Source: Planctomycetota bacterium (lineage in GTDB: Bacteria; Planctomycetota; Planctomycetia; Pirellulales; Pirellulaceae). Taken from it: a stretch of 14,861 bases of DNA. The notes beneath the pieces are model-generated. The model had not been told where the DNA came from and did no database searches. It saw nothing but the letters and a program-made list of their open reading frames with translations. The translations under genes were made by a program, and so were the position numbers. Within the stretch, counting starts at the first letter, position 1, and every line of letters begins with the position of its first letter. The DNA is taken from NCBI GenBank assembly GCA_026692885.1, contig JAPLNJ010000167.1, positions 1-14,861 on the forward strand, written 5' to 3'. Below are positions 3,126 to 11,349 of this stretch, one piece after another.

Positions 3126-4307
3126 TTAGTCCTTTTCCCGTCCGGCGATCGTCTCCGCCAGCGACATGCCCGCGTCCAGCAGGACCTGGAGATCGCTGGG
3201 ACCAATCTTGGCGTACCTGATCCACTGCTTGTCGCCGCGGGCGATATTCGCAACCACGGCGGACTGGTCAATCTGATCCAAGTAGGTCTCGTAGACGGTG
3301 GGATCGTTACACCAACGGTCAAACGCCGCTCGGGTCACCAGTTGGACCTGCTTCAGTTCACAACGGATGATCCGGCGTGACTCGCCGTTGAGACTCTTGG
3401 TGAAATGGATCATCCGGTTTGTGAAGAGCAATCCGCCTCCGCTACTTTCCCAACGCTCGATTGCTGCACGGTAAGGCGACACCAAATCCTTGGGAATCTC
3501 GCTCAGGAACAAGTCCAGGTCCATCTTGCCGGGTCGTTCAACTCGATCCTCTTCATCCGTTTCGACCGAAACGTCGGGCTTCTTTTCCTGGGTATAGCGG
3601 ATACGGACGATGCCACGGACCTTTTCAACAGTCCGCCCAACCACGTCTGGCACGACCACGAGGGGCCAGTCTTTTCCGTTCGCCAGGGGGTACATTCGCA
3701 TCTCGACCAGACCGAGTTGAAATCCAAGTCCGGGGCCGCTCTGGATGGCATCGCTGAGCAAGGTGATGTTCGGCGCAATCCGGTCACCGACGATTAGCAG
3801 CAGAAAGTTGCCCTCATCCAGATTCGTCACCACGCTGTCCTGGAAGTCAGCCAAGGGGATGGCGCGGTCGTCGAGTGCGGGCCTGATCTTGTCCTCCAGC
3901 GCGGGGGCCTCAACTTCTCCCCGCCTTCTTGACGAGGCAAGCACTGCCTCGCACAGGTCATCGTAACTCCAAGTGGCAAGTTCCTTCGCGTAGTCGATAA
4001 TCTGAGCCACAACCGTGCGGTGCTTTTCCGGATTCTTCCATAGCTTGGTTTCGACGATGGTCAGGCCGCCGGCCGGGCTGACGTAGAGATTATCCAGCGG
4101 CCCGCGACGGGTTTGCACCTCGCGGCCAATGGCAATCGGTGGGGCGAACGAGTCGTCGAACTCGTCGATCGGGAGTAGTTCGGGATGGCCGAACAGCAGT
4201 TCCTGAAGCCACCCTTCGTTCTTCGCGTCACCGGGGGACGATGTGATCCTGGTCAATGTGCGGCCGCGATCGGTGATCGAATCCAGGAAAACCGGGGAAC
4301 TGTTCAC
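3126..4307 (-). CDS. PD-(D/E)XK nuclease-like protein, two-domain
   Basis: 393 residues starting with GTG at 4307, which overlaps the stop of the small upstream ORF (GTGA). An AAAGGAAG ribosome binding site sits about 6 nt upstream inside that ORF, so translation is probably coupled. The N-terminal 120 residues carry a restriction-endonuclease-like core: Glu32/Glu36 in EGWLQELLFGHPELL, Asp72 in GPLDNLYV, and VETKLW with Glu86 and Lys88, followed by the helix HRTVVAQIIDYAKELATW with Gln102. This arrangement resembles NucS/DUF91-like and type IV restriction-like nucleases. Residues about 150-230 form a second alpha/beta segment, and the C-terminus (about 270-393) has a basic helical stretch and no recognised domain. 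Expected activity is metal-dependent DNA cleavage. Target and trigger are not visible. It could serve DNA repair or phage defence. Confidence 0.72.
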   Translation of the reverse strand: MNSSPVFLDSITDRGRTLTRITSSPGDAKNEGWLQELLFGHPELLPIDEFDDSFAPPIAIGREVQTRRGPLDNLYVSPAGGLTIVETKLWKNPEKHRTVVAQIIDYAKELATWSYDDLCEAVLASSRRRGEVEAPALEDKIRPALDDRAIPLADFQDSVVTNLDEGNFLLLIVGDRIAPNITLLSDAIQSGPGLGFQLGLVEMRMYPLANGKDWPLVVVPDVVGRTVEKVRGIVRIRYTQEKKPDVSVETDEEDRVERPGKMDLDLFLSEIPKDLVSPYRAAIERWESSGGGLLFTNRMIHFTKSLNGESRRIIRCELKQVQLVTRAAFDRWCNDPTVYETYLDQIDQSAVVANIARGDKQWIRYAKIGPSDLQVLLDAGMSLAETIAGREKD

Positions 4308-4804: not shown

Positions 4805-5212
4805 GCGATCTGGCGGGGCGTCGTACAAGAAGAGAAGGAGCCAGAATAGAAAAAGGGAACTCTTGCAAGAAAACTGGTCCAACTGGTCCAACTGGGGCGG
4901 AGGTGGCGTAACAGTAAAGCCCCACGATACCTATGTCACGGCCCAGTTGCCGAAACGCCGGCAACCCCACTGGACCATCTGCGCCACTGGCTTCGGGCAA
5001 ATTGACTTGTGCGTTTTCCCCCGCGACCCACGTATGTGCAAAGCAGCCACTCCGCTCGCGATGCTGCGGGCTCGGTGGCACACTTGTATAGGACCGGCAG
5101 GACCGCTGCCAAACGCGGCGGGTGACCCGGACGGCCATTCCGTTCGACGATACCAATCCCGACAGTTCCATCCCTTTTTTCGTCGACGGTATGGGCTTCT
5201 TCTTTCCTGGGT
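4805..5212. other. 408-bp stretch without a supported gene, with a 9-bp tandem repeat
   Basis: Several frames are open here, but their translations are rich in Arg, Pro and Ser and mirror each other, so none is accepted. At 4872-4889 the 9-mer AACTGGTCC occurs twice in tandem, followed by AACTGGGG, a diverged third copy. No clear promoter or terminator is seen. The region looks like eroded sequence between the relic ORF and the winged-helix gene. Confidence 0.5.
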
Positions 5213-5755
5213 ATGGCTGTTGCCCTTGATCGCGCTCCGGCGCAGGCACCAGGCACCATGCCCATCGTCAACCGCACCGGCGACAGCGCCAAGCTGCTGG
5301 CCCAGGCTGTAGCACTTCTCAACCAAGCGGTCAAACTGATCGGCGAAGCCGCTCCAGGAATCCTGGATGATCTCCGCCCCGTCCTTGCCGGCACGCCGAT
5401 CGACAGCCCGGTCGGGGCCGGTCACCCTGTTCCGACATCCAGAAACGGCTCGGCTTGCCTCCCGATCACCAATCGTGCGAACTTCAGCGTTCGCTGGGGC
5501 AACCGGACCTGTCGCCTCGGCAATACGCTGGGATTCAAGGTCCTGGAACGTCTGGCCCAGCGCCCAGGACTGTACCTGCACTACGACTCGCTGATGGACG
5601 AGTTCTGGGACCGTCACACTTCACCCGAGTCGGTGCGAAGTGCCGTCAAGATCCTGCGTAGGAAGCTCAGGGCGGCTGGCATGGGAGACTTGGCGAAGGC
5701 CATCGACGGCAGCAACTCGCACCACTACGGGCTGAAACTCAATGGGCGAACGTAG
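5213..5755 (+). CDS. PhoB/OmpR-type winged-helix DNA-binding protein without receiver domain
   Basis: 180 residues from ATG 5213. An internal ATG at 5258 (MPIVNRTG, 165 residues) is an equally plausible start, and neither has a clear Shine-Dalgarno. Residues about 90-176 match the C-terminal output domain of OmpR/PhoB regulators: FSVRWGNRTCRLGNTLGFKV, then LERLAQRPGLYLHYDSLMDEFW, then the recognition-helix segment ESVRSAVKILRRKLRAAG and the wing SNSHHYGLKL. There is no phospho-receiver domain. The N-terminus is a helix (AKLLAQAVALLNQAVKLIGE) that could dimerise or bind a partner, followed by a Pro-rich linker. It lies 202 bp upstream of a large serine recombinase on the same strand, and 11-bp-period repeats follow its stop codon at once. 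It is therefore a good candidate regulator of the recombinase-ParB operon or a DNA-bending accessory factor. Domain call firm, role inferred. Confidence 0.8.
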   Translation: MAVALDRAPAQAPGTMPIVNRTGDSAKLLAQAVALLNQAVKLIGEAAPGILDDLRPVLAGTPIDSPVGAGHPVPTSRNGSACLPITNRANFSVRWGNRTCRLGNTLGFKVLERLAQRPGLYLHYDSLMDEFWDRHTSPESVRSAVKILRRKLRAAGMGDLAKAIDGSNSHHYGLKLNGRT

Positions 5756-5758
5756 AAG

Positions 5759-5799
5759 TGCCACAGAAATGCCACAGCCTTGCCCCTGGTTTGACACAG
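5759..5799 (+). repeat. Four iteron-like units at exact 11-bp spacing (candidate operator)
   Basis: TGCCACAG occurs at 5759-5766 and identically at 5770-5777. TGCCCCTG at 5781-5788 matches 6 of 8 and TGACACAG at 5792-5799 matches 7 of 8. Each unit starts exactly 11 bp after the previous one. PhoB/OmpR-type winged helices bind head-to-tail repeats with an 11-bp period, and such a protein is encoded immediately upstream. The last unit contains TTGACA (5791-5796), which could be a -35 element covered by the protein. Confidence 0.55.
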
Positions 5800-5859
5800 G
5801 CCCGAAGCAGAATGCCGTGATCGTAGTTACCTCGACCTTTGTTGCGATCGTGCCAATCC

Positions 5860-5899
5860 GTTCGAGCCGGACGTTCCGCTGCCTGTCCGGCTAACGAAC
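5860..5899. repeat. Long inverted repeat upstream of the recombinase (candidate att or control site)
   Basis: AGCCGGAC (5865-5872) pairs perfectly with GTCCGGCT (5885-5892) across a 12-nt spacer. The pairing extends outward as GTTCG (5860-5864) with CGAAC (5895-5899) after a 2-nt bulge, 13 bp in all. A second, shorter repeat, GACGAC/GTCGTC, follows at 5902-5927. No T run follows, so it is not a terminator. Imperfect inverted repeats of this size beside a serine recombinase can be attachment or control sites. Confidence 0.4.
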
Positions 5900-5957
5900 C
5901 GGACGACGATCCGCGGCGCCGGTCGTCACTTTTACCTCACAACTGAGCGACCACAAC

Positions 5958-7526
5958 ATGGAGCACGACAATCTGAATCCAGAGGCCAGCCAACCTGGCC
6001 AGACGTTGACCCGTGCGGCGCAATACGTCCGCATGTCTACCGAGCACCAGCAGTACTCCACGGAGAACCAAGCCGACGTGATCCGGGAATACGCGGCCAA
6101 ACGCGGCTACGAGATCGTCCACACCTACGCCGACGATGGCAAGAGCGGGCTTAAGATGGAAGGTCGTGCCTCCCTGCGGACCATGATCGACGACGTGCAG
6201 GCGGGCAACCCCGGCTTCGATGCCATCCTGGTCTACGACGTGAGCCGCTGGGGCCGGTTCCAGGACACCGACGAGAGCGCGTACTACGAATACCTGTGCA
6301 AGCGGGCTGGGATCGACGTTCACTACTGCGCCGAACAGTTCGAGAACGACGGTGGCCCGGCCGCCACGATCATCAAGAGCGTCAAGCGGGTGATGGCGGC
6401 CGAGTACAGCCGCGAGCTGTCAACTAAGGTCTTCCAGGGGCAGTGCAAGCTGATTGAGTTGGGCTACCGCCAGGGGGGGCCGGCCGGGTACGGGCTGCGT
6501 CGAATGCTGATCGACCACACCCACAAGGAAAAAGGCGTCCTCGGGCGTGGGGAGAAGAAGAGCCTGCAAACCGACCGGGTTATCCTGGTGCAGGGTCCGG
6601 AAGAAGAAGTCCTGAACGTCCAGTGGATCTACCAGATGTTCATCCGCGAAGGCCGCGGGGAACGGGAGATCGCCGAGATCCTCAACGCCCGCGGCATCCT
6701 TACCGACCTCGGCCGTCCCTGGACTCGGGGCACGGTCCGGCAGGTCCTGATCAACGAGAAGTACATCGGCAATAACGTCTACAACCGCAGGTCGTTCAAG
6801 CTGAAGAAGAAGCGGGTGGTCAATACGCCGGACATGTTGGTCCGGCGCGAGGGCGCGTTCCAGCCGATCATCAGCCAGGAGGATTTCTACACGGCCCACG
6901 GGATCATCCTGGCGCGGGCCAGGCGGCTGACCGATGACGAGATGCTCGACCGGCTACGTACCCTCTTGGCGAGGCACTCCCTGCTGTCCAGCTTTCTAAT
7001 CGACTCAGCTGAGGAGATGCCGGCAAGCTCGGCATACCGGACTCGCTTCGGGAGCCTGCTCCGCGCCTACCAGCTTGCTGGCTACCGACCTGAGCGAGAC
7101 TACAGTTTCCTGGACATCAATCGGACGATCGGGCGGCTCCGACTCCAGTTGATCGACGATGTGCTTCGCCAGCTGAGCTCGGTTGGCGCCCACGTCACCC
7201 GGGACGACGCCACGAACCTGCTGTTGATCAACGGCGAGTATACGGCGTCGATGGTCCTTTCCCGGTGCCGCCAGACCGGGGGCGGGCTGCTGCGCTGGCT
7301 GGTCCAGATGGACCGGACCCTGGTTCCCGACATCACGATCCTGGTCCGCATGGATGCGACCAATCAGCAGCCGGCCGACTACTACCTGCTGCCGATCATG
7401 GACATCGCCGCGTCCAAGTTGCTGCTGTGCGAGAGCAACGGAATCCACTTGGACACATACCAGTTCGATAGCCTGGACTACTTCACCATCATGGCCAAAC
7501 GCAGAAAGATCGAGGTGGCAGCATGA
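5958..7526 (+). CDS. Large serine recombinase (resolvase/invertase superfamily) without zinc ribbon
   Basis: 522 residues. It is expected to cut and rejoin DNA through a 5'-phosphoserine link. The N-terminal resolvase domain (about 18-160) has AAQYVRMST with the nucleophile Ser27, DDGKSG at 59-64, VYDVSRWGRFQD at 92-103 with catalytic arginines, and MAAEYSREL. The DNA-binding 'recombinase' domain runs from about 173 to 285 (GGPAGYGLRR, then EIAEILNARGI, WTRGTVRQVLINEKYIGNNVYNRR). After this, most large serine recombinases have a Cys4 zinc ribbon and coiled coil. Here no CxxC pair is present. Instead there are about 200 residues including TRFGSLLRAYQLAGY and a C-terminal alpha/beta segment (PDITILVRMDAT, DYYLLPIMDI, LLLCESNGIHLDTYQFDSLD). 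No Shine-Dalgarno is visible before ATG 5958. The end overlaps the first ParB gene by ATGA, so the two are co-translated. Family certain. Whether it integrates, excises or resolves is unknown. Confidence 0.93.
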   Translation: MEHDNLNPEASQPGQTLTRAAQYVRMSTEHQQYSTENQADVIREYAAKRGYEIVHTYADDGKSGLKMEGRASLRTMIDDVQAGNPGFDAILVYDVSRWGRFQDTDESAYYEYLCKRAGIDVHYCAEQFENDGGPAATIIKSVKRVMAAEYSRELSTKVFQGQCKLIELGYRQGGPAGYGLRRMLIDHTHKEKGVLGRGEKKSLQTDRVILVQGPEEEVLNVQWIYQMFIREGRGEREIAEILNARGILTDLGRPWTRGTVRQVLINEKYIGNNVYNRRSFKLKKKRVVNTPDMLVRREGAFQPIISQEDFYTAHGIILARARRLTDDEMLDRLRTLLARHSLLSSFLIDSAEEMPASSAYRTRFGSLLRAYQLAGYRPERDYSFLDINRTIGRLRLQLIDDVLRQLSSVGAHVTRDDATNLLLINGEYTASMVLSRCRQTGGGLLRWLVQMDRTLVPDITILVRMDATNQQPADYYLLPIMDIAASKLLLCESNGIHLDTYQFDSLDYFTIMAKRRKIEVAA

Positions 7527-8407
7527 ACCGAGAGCAAGACAACGTGCAGTATATTCCCATCGCCAAAATTACCGTCCCCAATCCCCGGTCGCGTGGCAAG
7601 AAGAAGTTCAAGCAGATCATCGCCAACATTGCCGAGATAGGCCTGAAGAAGCCGATCACCGTGGCGGAATATCGGACCGCAGAAGGGGAAACTAAGTACT
7701 TCCTGGGCTGCGGGCAAGGGCGGCTGGAAGCCTACATCAGCCTGGGCGAGACCGAGATTCCGGCCATCGTCATCGAGGCCACCAAGGTGGAACTGATGCT
7801 GATCAGCTTGGTCGAGAACCTGGCGCGGCGTTCGCCAACGACGATGGAACACGCCAGGAAGATCGCTGACATGAGGGAACGCGGCGCCACGCCTGCTGAA
7901 ATCGCCCAAAAGGCCGGGCTGGATGTATCCTATGTCAATGCGATTCTGAAACTCGTTACCAAAGGCGAAGAGCGGCTGCTGCGGGCGGTCGAGAGGGAGC
8001 AGATGCCGCTCAGCGTTGCCGTCACCATTGCCACCTCCAACGACGCGGCGGTCCAGCGTGCCTTGGCAGATGCCTACGAAAAGAAACAGTTACGCGGCAA
8101 GGCACTCCTCAGGGTGCGCCGACTGGTCGAAGAACGGCGCAGCCGTGGCAAGTCCCTTCATCGCGGAGTGCCCTGCCGTAACCACGGCGAAGTGTCGTCA
8201 GAGCAGTTGCTGAAGGTCTACCGGGAAGAGACCGCCCGGCAGAAGGCGTTCGTCCAGAAGGCCAAGCACTGCGAGACCAGGCTCGTGTTCGCAGTATCGG
8301 CCCTAAAGCAGCTCTTTGGGGACGACCACTTCACGACGCTGCTGCGCGCCGAGTCGCTCGATTCGCTGCCGCAGTACTTGGCTGTCCAGATCCACGGTGA
8401 GGGCTGA
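7523..8407 (+). CDS. ParB-like nuclease/CTPase-fold protein with HTH (first of two)
   Basis: 294 residues. The start overlaps the recombinase stop (ATGA), with GAGGTGG a few nt upstream. The N-terminal ParB/sulfiredoxin-fold domain (about 8-105) shows IPIAKITVPNPRSR, the box GCGQGRLEAY (62-71) in place of the usual GERRxRA, and SLVENLARR (95-103) matching the ENIQR box. These are the segments that bind CTP in chromosomal ParB, and the key arginines are kept. A helix-turn-helix follows (GATPAEIAQKAGLDVSYVNAILKL, about 121-144), then a long basic helical region and a C-terminus with no recognised dimerisation domain. Partition ParBs bind parS and work with a ParA ATPase, but no ParA is encoded here, so a partition role is not supported. 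It more likely serves as specificity or architectural factor for the recombinase. Domain call firm, role inferred. Confidence 0.87.
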   Translation: MNREQDNVQYIPIAKITVPNPRSRGKKKFKQIIANIAEIGLKKPITVAEYRTAEGETKYFLGCGQGRLEAYISLGETEIPAIVIEATKVELMLISLVENLARRSPTTMEHARKIADMRERGATPAEIAQKAGLDVSYVNAILKLVTKGEERLLRAVEREQMPLSVAVTIATSNDAAVQRALADAYEKKQLRGKALLRVRRLVEERRSRGKSLHRGVPCRNHGEVSSEQLLKVYREETARQKAFVQKAKHCETRLVFAVSALKQLFGDDHFTTLLRAESLDSLPQYLAVQIHGEG

Positions 8408-8408
8408 C

Positions 8409-9299
8409 ATGGCCAATCGCGTACGCCTTGCTTGTGAGACCAGCATCATCTCGGTCCCGCTGACGAGCATCTTGCCCGTGCGAAAGCTCAGCGCGGGCAT
8501 CGACAAGACCGAGAAGTACCGCCGCATCGCGGCCTCGATCCGGGAGGTTGGAATCATCGAACCACTGGTCGTGTATCCCCAAGCCAACGGCAGCACCCAG
8601 TACATCCTGCTGGACGGGCACGTGCGGCTGGCGATCCTCAAAGAAATGGGAGCCGAGAAGGTCAACTGCCTTGTGGCGATCGACGACGACGCCTTCACAT
8701 ACAACCACAAGGTCAACCAGCTTTCAGCTATCCAGGAGCACTTCATGATCATGGAGGCGATCCGGCAGGGCGTGTCCGAAGAACGGATCGCCAAGACGCT
8801 GGCGGTGGACTTGGCTGCCATCCGGCGGAAACGCGACCTACTGGACGGGATCTGCCCGGAGGCGGTGCAGCTACTGAAGGAGAAGCGGGCTGCTGCCGGC
8901 GCATTCCGCGAGATACGGAAGGTCAAACCCATGCGGCAGATCGAAATGGCGGAGCTTATGGTCGCGGCCAACAATTTCTCCGCCAGCTACGCCCGCTGCC
9001 TGCTCGCCGCCACGCCCCAGGAGCAACTCTTGGAACCTGACAAGCCCAAGGATGTGGGTGGACTCAGCCCGGAAGACATGTCCCGCATGGAGCGGGAGAT
9101 GGAGAACCTCGGCCAGGACTTGCGGGCCGTCGAAGAATCGCATGGCCGGAACGTTTTGAACCTGGTGCTGGTCGTCGGCTACCTGAAGAAGTTGCTGGAC
9201 AACGCCCGCGTGGTCCGCTACCTGTCCCAACACTGCGCCGAGATTCTGTCGGAATTCCAAGCGATCGTGGAGGTGAAGAGTACGGGAAGCGGCGAGTGA
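8409..9299 (+). CDS. ParB-like protein with RepB C-terminal domain (second of two)
   Basis: 296 residues from ATG 8409, one nt after the stop of the preceding ParB gene and behind GTGAGGG. A longer frame from 8316 only overlaps that gene and is rejected. The N-terminal ParB fold (about 12-110) has the box ILLDGHVRLAI (67-77) and YNHKVNQLSAIQEHFMI (98-114), the second ParB box. A helix-turn-helix follows (GVSEERIAKTLAVDLAAIRR, 121-140). From about 148 to 203 comes a plasmid-partition RepB-type domain (CPEAVQLLKEKRAAAGAF, then KVKPMRQIEMAELM, NNFSASYARCLLAATP). The C-terminal 80 residues are coiled and acidic/basic. The two ParB proteins differ in their boxes and domains, so they are not a recent duplication and may form a heteromeric complex. 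It is the last gene of the operon. A divergent partner role with the recombinase is inferred. Confidence 0.88.
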   Translation: MANRVRLACETSIISVPLTSILPVRKLSAGIDKTEKYRRIAASIREVGIIEPLVVYPQANGSTQYILLDGHVRLAILKEMGAEKVNCLVAIDDDAFTYNHKVNQLSAIQEHFMIMEAIRQGVSEERIAKTLAVDLAAIRRKRDLLDGICPEAVQLLKEKRAAAGAFREIRKVKPMRQIEMAELMVAANNFSASYARCLLAATPQEQLLEPDKPKDVGGLSPEDMSRMEREMENLGQDLRAVEESHGRNVLNLVLVVGYLKKLLDNARVVRYLSQHCAEILSEFQAIVEVKSTGSGE

Positions 9300-9444: not shown

Positions 9445-10116
9445 TCACCGTCGCCTTCGAGTCACGGCCTGATCCTCCCCGCCTGATTTCTCCTGCTGCT
9501 GCTGCGGCTGCTGCGGCGGCGGCGGGCTGATCACATTGAACGCCTTGGTCACCTCCGCCATCGCGTTTTGGATTTTGCCCGGCAGATCCGTGAGCCGGAT
9601 CTTGACGCCTTTGTCCTTCTGGTCAGCAAGTCGATCTGACCATCGACGCCAGCTGACGGCGAAACCCTCCAACTGCAGCAGCACGCCAGGTACGTCTTGA
9701 GCAACATCCGGTTTCCGCCCGCCGGTCCCCGTGGGCCGGCGGGCGCGTTTCAGCTCGGCCACGATCCGCACGTTGGACCAGCGCTCACTGATCAGCCGCT
9801 TCTGAAACTGAACCCGTTTGCCTTTGTCCCTGATCTTGATCAAGTGCCCGACGACCGTTAGCCCGATGGCGCGGTTGTGCTGCTCGCACTGGCGGCACAA
9901 CTGTTCAAGATCTTTCTTGGTGTACGTGGTGGCAAACCTGCGCAGCGCGCGGACCTGGTGGGCGAGCAATCTCTCTTGCTTGCAGACGGCTTGCATGTCG
10001 CCCCAGCGTCTCGAACGTTTCTTATGCGTCCCCAACAGCTGCTTGCCCTTCTGGTGGTACTCTCGTAACTGCGCGATTGCCGCCAACACATCAGCCGGCG
10101 CAGGTTTCTTTGCCAT
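9445..10116 (-). CDS. Basic helical protein with Pro/Gln-rich tail, unknown function
   Basis: 223 residues from ATG 10116 (MAKKPAPADV), with AGGAAACG placed correctly upstream. A 32-codon in-frame extension has no support. Residues 1-130 are strongly basic and helical (HKKRSRRWGDMQ, then YTKKDLEQLCRQCEQHNRA). The segment 85-125 (IGLTVVGHLIKIRDKGKR, then ISERWSNVRIVAELKR) weakly resembles the N-terminal helical domain of DUF1016/YhcG proteins, but the nuclease domain of that family is absent. The C-terminus is SPPPPPQQPQQQQ followed by TRRRR and is encoded by a CTG/CGG trinucleotide run. It is convergent with the ParB operon (145 nt between stops) and so is not part of it. It may still belong to the same mobile module, possibly as a DNA-binding accessory protein. 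I do not recognise the family with confidence. Confidence 0.65.
   Translation of the reverse strand: MAKKPAPADVLAAIAQLREYHQKGKQLLGTHKKRSRRWGDMQAVCKQERLLAHQVRALRRFATTYTKKDLEQLCRQCEQHNRAIGLTVVGHLIKIRDKGKRVQFQKRLISERWSNVRIVAELKRARRPTGTGGRKPDVAQDVPGVLLQLEGFAVSWRRWSDRLADQKDKGVKIRLTDLPGKIQNAMAEVTKAFNVISPPPPQQPQQQQEKSGGEDQAVTRRRR
9493..9525. repeat. CTG/CGG trinucleotide run inside a coding region
   Basis: About eleven consecutive CTG, CGG or near-identical triplets. On the minus strand they encode the Pro-Gln tail of the 223-residue protein. Slippage-prone repeats of this kind may vary in length between related strains. Confidence 0.6.
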
Positions 10117-11058
10117 CGTCGTTTCCTGCGGGTTGTAGGGATCGACCTTGACGGCACTCGCCAAGATCCGGGGCGATCCCAGTGTAGCCGCGGCAGGATC
10201 GAGAATCCACATTCTATACGGACATCCTGGGCTAGATCGTTCGCTTCTTTGCTACCCGTGGGGCCGGGTAGTTTGCTGCGTGTCCTGCAGATCAATCGGA
10301 CCCTCCCGTGTTTCGGTGTTTCACTGTTGAAATCAAATTCAACTCGATTGCAAGGCTTGCGGTGTGAACATCAGACGGCGTCTTGGTGGTGGTCGGACAG
10401 TCGGTTTTCGGCCCGCGCAGCGGGGGTTAATGTATGTGAGAAACCTGTTAAACTAACGGTCGAATTCGACCCGGGTTTGGTGCATTCGGGCGGAATTACG
10501 CACACTACAGGTGCTCAGGTCCGGCCCAAACGACCTTTCCTGGTCCATATCTGGGCCTATTTTGTCGCTGAGTCGCACCTTCGTTCTTGCGTTGTTTCCA
10601 GGTTTTCGTGCGATTTTTCCGGCCTGGGCCCCCCGACTGGCAGGGATTAACGGGCCTTGTCGCAGCCGACAGGGGTCGTGCGCCTTACGTGGACCCCTCT
10701 CACTGATTGAGGAGGCCCCTGTTTAATGAGAGTCCGACATGAAACTGCGGACAGAGATGGTGCGGTTGCAGCGGCCGCCCGCGATGACGACGTGCCGTAG
10801 CCTGATGGGGGAGGTTGGGCGCGGCCTAGTGGTCTGCCACATGCGACCGCATCCGTCTCAGCACTTCAGGCCCTAGCCGGTTGTCGACTGAATCTCGCCG
10901 CAGGTCCATACTGCGGAGGTAAGCACGAGCACCGGCTTGCCAGCCGCGAGACGGCAGCTTCCGGTGGCCGCAGCTTTACGGGCAGGGACGTGATGGGTAG
11001 GCTGGGGCCAGCTTCGTTAATTTGCCATCCTTGATCCCCTTTGCGGCAGTCTCGACTG
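10117..11058. other. About 940-bp gene-free stretch with inverted repeats
   Basis: No frame gives a convincing protein. Frames at 10249-10650 (plus) and a 45-codon ORF at 10739-10876 have no family features. Visible structures: CTACCCG/CGGGTAG (10252-10271, 6-nt loop), GTTGAA/TTCAAC (10326-10343, operator-like), and AGGGGTC/GACCCCT (10671-10698). The last can alternatively pair as ACAGGGG (10669-10675) with CCCCTGT (10716-10722). A TAGAAT near 10215 on the minus strand could be the -10 of the basic-protein gene, without a good -35. The stretch looks like degenerate or regulatory sequence. Confidence 0.4.
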
Positions 11059-11349
11059 ATGAACCCTGCGACCACGTTGCCGTCGTCGATCGGCTCGACC
11101 TCGTCCAGCCTGATTCAACGGATCAAGGCCCAGGATGCCGATGCCTCGACCAAGTTGGTGCGGCTGTACGGCCCGCTCGTGGATTTCTGGCTCGGGCGCG
11201 AGGGACGCGAAGGGGCGGATGTTGAGGACGTGTTTCAGGACGTGTTTGCCACGGTCGCCCGGGGAATCGCGGATTTCCGCAAGGATCGCCCCGGCGATAC
11301 GTTCCGTGACTATGGCACGAGCGCACTCAGGAGGGCCCAGACCAGCTGA
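11059..11349 (+). pseudogene. Truncated ECF-type sigma-70 factor (region 2 only)
   Basis: 96 codons from ATG 11059. Residues about 18-83 match sigma-70 region 2 of planctomycete ECF factors: SLIQRIKAQDADASTKLVRL, then YGPLVDFWL, and the core ADVEDVFQDVFATVARGI with ADFRKDRPGDTFR, the segment that contacts core polymerase and the -10 element. In full-length relatives this continues through a W-rich stretch and region 4 for roughly another 100 residues. Here the similarity stops abruptly after TFRDY, with 11 unrelated residues and a stop. Neither of the other two frames restores region 4 in the following 300 bp. It therefore cannot recognise a -35 element and is best read as a gene fragment, possibly broken by a rearrangement near 11315. 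A stand-alone region-2 product acting as a decoy is possible but unsupported. Confidence 0.65.

What the first reader, a model, noticed from the sequence alone, without database searches (positions are those of the whole stretch)
5213..9299. Recombinase plus two unlike ParB proteins plus PhoB-type winged-helix gene, without ParA
The recombinase, ParB-1 and ParB-2/RepB genes form a tight operon (ATGA overlap, 1-nt gap), preceded by a receiver-less PhoB-type winged-helix protein. ParB proteins normally work with a ParA ATPase and parS, and none is seen here. A plausible reading is that the two ParB-like proteins act as target-choosing or synapsis factors for the serine recombinase, making a mobile or DNA-rearranging module. 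Similar recombinase/ParB/RepB gene trios may already be annotated elsewhere (from memory), but I know of no described mechanism.
Basis: partly seen in the sequence, partly recalled or inferred. Interest (0 to 1): 0.75.

Follow-up and report, generated by a model that had tools for sequence, protein, structure and literature searches.

The report
Mobile recombinase unit with ParB partners
A four-gene, four-kilobase stretch of planctomycete DNA looks like a compact mobile element in which a DNA-cutting recombinase travels with two ParB-like DNA-binding proteins, a kind of protein best known from chromosome segregation, whose job here is unknown but testable.

Summary
In detail: winged-helix gene (better start 5258), large serine recombinase (REC), PB1 and PB2 form a tight operon; no ParA or parS-like site was found. 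The trio is near-obligate: 59 of 66 PB2 loci with enough upstream sequence carry REC and PB1; 53 of 67 virus-collection REC loci carry both ParBs, and the nine with none are the more distant RECs, 40-45% identical.

The unit moves. Close copies share only a 3.9-4.5 kb block in planctomycetes, Agrobacterium and Pseudomonas. On two Agrobacterium plasmids it lies between direct copies of a ~22-bp site that recurs up to 19 times per plasmid, nearly always in one orientation per plasmid or arc, and where neighbouring genes often lose homology. A trio-less Sphingobium plasmid shows the uninterrupted locus.

The winged-helix protein is probably the unit's own regulator (11-bp-period repeats before REC).

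Inferred, not shown: what the ParBs do, and which site the window's own unit uses. Best reading: a new variant of serine-integrase element with two near-obligatory ParB-like accessory factors. Ten searches of the held library listed no paper on the trio.

The parts
5129..9299 (+). Probable extent of the mobile unit; the left limit is approximate, the right limit is the PB2 stop or a little beyond
   Evidence: DNA similarity to L002 starts at 5131 and to L001 ends at 9299; no protein-level match in the remaining flanks of either pair. Inferred also from sharper ends in relatives
5258..5755 (+). Winged-helix (PhoB/OmpR-type effector domain, no receiver) protein, probable regulator of the unit
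   Evidence: PF00486, 2.3e-7 for this start; start by comparison with L002
5756..5777 (+). Two 11-bp direct repeats (AAGTGCCACAG / AAATGCCACAG), probable operator for the winged-helix protein
   Evidence: 10 of 11 matches, 0 of 300 shuffles as good; period-11 signal in 27 loci taken together
5958..7526 (+). Large serine recombinase REC, 522 aa; catalytic Ser27 codon at 6036-6038
   Evidence: PF00239 and PF07508; Ser and neighbouring motif invariant in 70 aligned loci
7523..8407 (+). PB1, ParB/RepB-like protein, 294 aa
   Evidence: PF07506, ParB_N; sequence match to Spo0J and Noc structures
8409..9299 (+). PB2, RepB-type ParB-like protein, 296 aa
   Evidence: PF07506 3e-47; weaker profile match to Noc structures

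Best explanation
The window holds one copy of a compact integrative mobile unit of about 4.2 kb. SHOWN by comparison: winged-helix/REC/PB1/PB2 is a conserved planctomycete unit and REC/PB1/PB2 a conserved trio in several phyla; close copies of the unit lie in unrelated flanks with sharp ends; in two Agrobacterium plasmids the unit lies between direct copies of a dispersed short site. INFERRED: REC, a large serine recombinase related to phage-type integrases, excises and inserts the unit (or, in some hosts, a larger plasmid segment or prophage) by cutting and rejoining at short sites. PB1 and PB2 are near-obligatory DNA-binding accessory factors that sit at or near the ends and set site choice, synapsis or direction; PB1 is the likelier CTP-dependent clamp. 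The winged-helix protein controls the operon through 11-bp repeats in front of REC.
For: Linkage 59 of 66 and 53 of 67; distance matrices correlate, r 0.74-0.87, n=70. Unit-sized shared blocks with otherwise unmatched or nearly unmatched flanks: C58/1D1460 3904 bp 96.9%, G003/G255 4049 bp 91.5%, L084/L080 4478 bp 92.8%, two copies in Rhodopirellula europaea 6C 4020 bp 82.8%. Direct-repeat site at both ends in Agrobacterium. Uninterrupted locus in Sphingobium. Patchy: 14 of 396 genomes sampled from one order. Catalytic motifs invariant. Operator-like repeats in 27 loci taken together.
Against: No recombination, DNA binding or CTP binding was tested. No direct-repeat site was found at planctomycete ends or at the L084, L080 and L034 ends. 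No empty site was found for a planctomycete unit. REC trees are mostly phylum-wise, and three Phycisphaerales loci keep the same left flank, so much inheritance is vertical or transfer is within phyla. The Agrobacterium site also occurs on plasmids where no trio was matched and once, away from the trio, on pAtCFBP6623a. Seven of 66 PB2 loci have neither partner, five of 67 REC loci have only one ParB and nine none.
Confidence: 0.66

Rival explanations
1. Integron-like capture platform: REC with its ParBs joins other DNA at the unit's end or at dispersed copies of its site, so that neighbouring modules are shuffled in trans and the unit is only one module among many.
For: Site copies in one orientation per plasmid or arc on Rhizobiaceae plasmids; homology breaks within 20 bases of the site in 24 of 43, 1 of 23 and 3 of 26 records that do not cover the whole query; different right flanks directly after PB2 in L016/L019/L020 and in L034/L035; plasmid lineages joined at the Sphingobium trio.
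Against: The trio's action on these sites is not shown; plasmids without a matched trio carry the site; two opposite arcs in pAt1D1460 could mean an inversion or a replication-linked motif; most breaks at two of the three tested sites lie elsewhere; no such site was found in planctomycetes.
Confidence: 0.15
2. Plasmid or element maintenance module: REC resolves multimers and the ParB-like proteins partition or stabilise the replicon.
For: RepB/ParB family names; 107 of 72,556 plasmid records match PB2.
Against: No ParA family matched among the window proteins scanned and no match to one parS consensus; the unit also sits in long chromosomal contigs such as CA13; REC carries the PF07508 domain of large recombinases; unit-sized blocks move between backgrounds.
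Confidence: 0.07
3. Integration module of prophages or larger islands, of which the window copy is a remnant.
For: 119 REC relatives in the virus collection; a set of more distant RECs without ParBs; the REC match ends within 15 bases of the stored contig end in nine of 80 virus loci (L148, L186, L199, L200, L201, L212, L213, L216, and no ParB could be seen there).
Against: The four genes are intact; the five window proteins scanned against PHROGs gave no structural or packaging family; unit-sized blocks of about 4 kb are shared without other genes.
Confidence: 0.12

Closest known systems
Large serine recombinases / serine integrases (phiC31, TP901-1, TnpX, Ccr type; comparison partly recalled)
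   Same: PF00239 plus PF07508; sequence match to TP901-1 integrase and TnpX structures and to the CcrB model (85 bits, far below its cut-off of 900)
   Different: Two ParB/RepB-like partners in a fixed operon; no zinc-ribbon domain matched; unit of about 4 kb
ParABS / RepABC partition systems
   Same: ParB_N and RepB domains; PB1 resembles Spo0J and Noc
   Different: No ParA matched and no match to one parS consensus in the window; coupled to a recombinase
Integrons
   Same: On Rhizobiaceae plasmids, like-oriented short sites between gene modules
   Different: Serine, not tyrosine, recombinase; the role of the trio at these sites is unproven; not seen in planctomycetes
IS607-type elements (recalled)
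   Same: Small mobile unit with a serine recombinase; weak NCBIfam match to IS607 transposase (30 bits, cut-off 110)
   Different: Large recombinase with PF07508, two ParB-like proteins, no TnpB seen

Membership tests
Large serine recombinase | N-terminal resolvase domain followed by Recombinase domain PF07508 | tested here: met
   both above the curated cut-off
Large serine recombinase | Conserved catalytic serine and arginine-rich motifs | tested here: met
   YxRMST, DxGKSGL, YDxSRWGRFQ, KR invariant or nearly so in 70 aligned loci
Large serine recombinase | Recombinase zinc-ribbon domain (present in many members, recalled) | tested here: not met
   Pfam scan of REC lists only PF00239 and PF07508; the REC structure job did not finish
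Serine-integrase element | Unit with defined ends in unrelated flanks | tested here: met
   in relatives; for the window itself only indirect
Serine-integrase element | attB/attP sites and empty target site | tested here: inconclusive
   Agrobacterium direct sites and Sphingobium empty locus; none found in planctomycetes
ParABS partition system | ParA ATPase gene next to ParB | tested here: not met
   no ParA family in nine window proteins scanned; one fetched plasmid trio (L087) has ParA genes about 8-10 kb away
ParABS partition system | parS site | tested here: inconclusive
   0 matches to one recalled consensus; other parS types not tested
ParB CTPase clamp | CTP-binding motifs and CTP-dependent closing | not testable with these tools
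   PB1 keeps GQGR and EN.AR motifs, PB2 only the DGHxR motif (role of the motifs recalled)
Prophage | Structural or packaging genes nearby | tested here: not met
   five window proteins against PHROGs and nine against Pfam gave none; not every ORF was scanned
Integron | Tyrosine integrase IntI | tested here: not met
   REC is a serine recombinase

The most novel reading that the evidence does not exclude
ParB-type clamp proteins have been recruited as obligatory site-choice, synapsis and direction factors of a serine recombinase, giving a widespread class of mobile element that in Rhizobiaceae also shuffles gene modules between like-oriented short sites: an integron-like system built on a serine recombinase.
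Probability: 0.24. Interest if true: 0.87.

Novelty: new variant of a known kind. Interest (0 to 1): 0.63.

Why it matters
Serine integrases are widely used DNA-writing tools, and their direction is known to be set by small, unrelated directionality factors (recalled; abstracts say the same). A branch with two dedicated ParB-like partners, found in planctomycetes, verrucomicrobia, myxobacteria, Hydrogenedentes and proteobacteria, would show a new way to control recombination and give a role outside segregation to proteins that databases name plasmid partitioning factors. If the Rhizobiaceae site family belongs to the trio, it would help to explain the mosaic build of pAt plasmids.

Tried and rejected
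Direct-repeat ends in planctomycetes: local alignment of left and right ends gave nothing convincing (best G255 p 0.042, L012 p 0.12 by mono-nucleotide shuffles; seven loci were entered but the script misplaced the left anchor of L025, so six were really tested). The same test found none for L084, L080 and L034. Dispersed copies of the left-end motif of L001: G001 6 and G002 5 matches at up to 2 mismatches, reversed control 7 and 1, so no clear signal. Empty site for planctomycete G003: no relative among 40 matched both flanks; the repeats at its right end are paralogues of a small gene. Long direct repeats (about 80-255 bp) beside five kinds of trio (L030, L053, L079, Roseomonas, Sphingobium): L030 is, by my reading, a transposase fragment; L053, L079 and Roseomonas are unresolved. 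A suspected integron array beside the G255 trio proved to be 19 tRNA genes. The PB2 model was poor (mean pLDDT 57), so no fold search was run. The REC structure job had not finished at the last look. Papers: ten searches listed none on the trio, judged from titles and abstract starts; I read only passages of one, PMC6536676, which reports Paracoccus prophage serine recombinases without identified integration sites but does not describe the trio in the passages seen.

Full report
OBSERVATION. The four genes exist as described. The winged-helix gene more likely starts at 5258. REC has the two Pfam domains of large serine recombinases and near-invariant catalytic motifs. PB1 and PB2 both carry the RepB C-terminal domain; PB1 is related by sequence to Spo0J and Noc structures, PB2 more weakly. 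No ParA family was matched in the nine window proteins scanned, and one recalled parS consensus has no match.

CONSERVATION. A PB2 profile found 68 loci in genome contigs and 15 in virus contigs. Of these 83, 82 gave a strong PB2 hit; 16 were set aside because less than 2.7 kb lies upstream, leaving 66. Of the 66, 59 have both REC and PB1 upstream and 7 have neither. Of those 7, five match only part of PB2 (L059, L062, L065, L066, L067); L026 and L045 match nearly all of it, and L045 has a PB1 fragment. From the REC side, the virus collection gave 119 relatives, of which the best 80 were kept. Of 67 with at least 1.8 kb downstream, 53 have both ParBs, 5 one, 9 none. Distance matrices of REC, PB1 and PB2 correlate at 0.74-0.87 over 70 loci, the window and eight plasmid loci among the candidates. 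In a tree of 52 RECs the 27 planctomycete rows form one group (98/95), and the window lies with Candidatus Anammoximicrobium L001, so transfer, where it occurs, is mostly within phyla. The trio is patchy: 14 of 396 genomes drawn from one order and 6 of 60 relatives of CA13, CA13 included.

MOBILITY. Pairs of close copies share the unit and little or nothing else. Agrobacterium C58 pAt and pAt1D1460: 3904 bp, 96.9%, plus one stray 191-bp match at 73%; at protein level the masked flanks gave 11 matches, the six shown being 10-31 residues long and scattered. Planctomycetes G003 (CA13) and G255: 4049 bp, 91.5%, nothing else in 20 kb, the left end 275 bases before the winged-helix match and the right end 32 bases after the PB2 stop. 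P. aeruginosa plasmid L084 and virus-collection contig L080: 4478 bp, 92.8%, reaching about 0.63 kb past PB2. Two copies in Rhodopirellula europaea 6C: 4020 bp, 82.8%, no flank match. L034 and L035 are 97.6% identical up to about six bases after the PB2 stop and then differ; L035 continues with DNA that lies 1.4 kb further on in L034, at about 80% identity, inside what I read as an AbiEi-like gene. Three Phycisphaerales loci share left flank and trio but no right flank. For the window itself the evidence is indirect: similarity to L001 covers 6012-9299 and to L002 starts at 5131, with no protein-level match in the flanks.

SITES. Both ends of the Agrobacterium unit carry direct copies of CCTTGA-N7-YGAACC (one copy with one mismatch); in C58 the repeat extends over about 39 bp. 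Homologues of the neighbouring AbiEii and Fic genes on other plasmids stop or start there too. A looser pattern gave 26 and 27 matches on the two plasmids against 4 and 6 for the backward control. The stricter pattern CTTGANNGGANNYGAACC at up to 1 mismatch occurs 17 times in C58 pAt, all on one strand; 9 and 10 times on the two strands of pAt1D1460, in two separate arcs; 32 times in six other Rhizobiaceae plasmids, 31 of them in the majority orientation of their plasmid; once in pAtCFBP6623a, away from its trio; and not in three trio plasmids of other families. The backward control gave 0 in all twelve records. Around three such sites, records that do not cover the whole query end or start within 20 bases of the site in 24 of 43, 1 of 23 and 3 of 26 cases (my count from the listings, which show the best place of each record). 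So at least the first is a recombination hot spot; that the trio acts there is inference. Sphingobium cloacae pSCLO_4 has arsH next to the DUF2493 gene with no trio, where pSF1 has the trio between direct repeats of about 77 bp (81% identity). The left flank of pSF1 is 98% like pSCLO_4, and the right flank is 98% like pCFD-2-2 and 80% like pSCLO_4, so two plasmid lineages meet there.

REGULATION. Between winged-helix gene and REC an 11-bp tandem repeat stands out: the best match averages 8.8 of 11 at period 11 against 6.0-6.6 at periods 8-10 and 12-15 in 27 loci; it is weak or absent in some (L003, L013, L016, L017, L032). Period 11 is what PhoB/OmpR-type binding would give (family knowledge). 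In most annotated proteobacterial plasmids a divergently transcribed gene takes this place; of seven such proteins scanned, two have an HTH domain above or near its cut-off (L088, L125) and five none.

MECHANISM. REC is expected to cut and rejoin at short sites. The near-constant presence of two ParB-like partners suggests that they are needed for the reaction or its control. PB1 keeps GQGR and EN.AR motifs that correspond to CTP-binding motifs of ParB (recalled); PB2 keeps only a DGHxR motif. That PB1 is the switch and PB2 a DNA-bound partner is a guess.

NOVELTY. Database names for the separate genes exist in plasmid records (recombinase family protein; plasmid partitioning protein RepB C-terminal domain-containing protein). 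Ten searches of the held library listed no paper on the trio; most subscription journals and preprints are not held. I rate it a new variant of the serine-integrase kind of element.

Noticed in passing
NC_003064.2 and other Rhizobiaceae plasmids: A dispersed like-oriented site CTTGANNGGANNYGAACC, up to 19 copies per plasmid, also on plasmids where no trio was matched; in pAt1D1460 the orientation flips between two arcs.
   Followed up: partly
L128:1170-6039: A cluster of 19 tRNA genes on one strand just upstream of the G255 trio; related DNA lies near the trios of L025 and G005.
   Followed up: partly
L069, L070, L072, L073, L074, L076, L082, L083, L088, L089 after PB2: A conserved non-coding stretch of about 125 bp (GGGGACCCGGACCC...GCGGGGACC) follows PB2 in ten loci; function unknown; no Rfam match at gathering score in the two loci searched, L073 and L088.
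   Followed up: partly
L079:5151-5404 and 10901-11152: A small gene of unknown function is present as 85% direct repeats on both sides of the trio, the right copy starting directly after the PB2 stop.
   Followed up: no
L125, L126 downstream of PB2: TniQ, TniB and a Mu-type transposase lie directly next to the trio in two Agrobacterium plasmids.
   Followed up: no
window 3126-4307 (-): Protein with a PADLOC match to candidate defence model PDC-S11 (1.7e-7).
   Followed up: no
window 9445-10212 (-): Protein with a weak DUF1016_N match (E 0.0075) next to the right end of the unit.
   Followed up: no
virus-collection loci L218, L219, L221-L227: Nine more distant REC relatives (40-45% identity) without a ParB neighbour: a natural comparison set for what the ParBs add.
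   Followed up: partly
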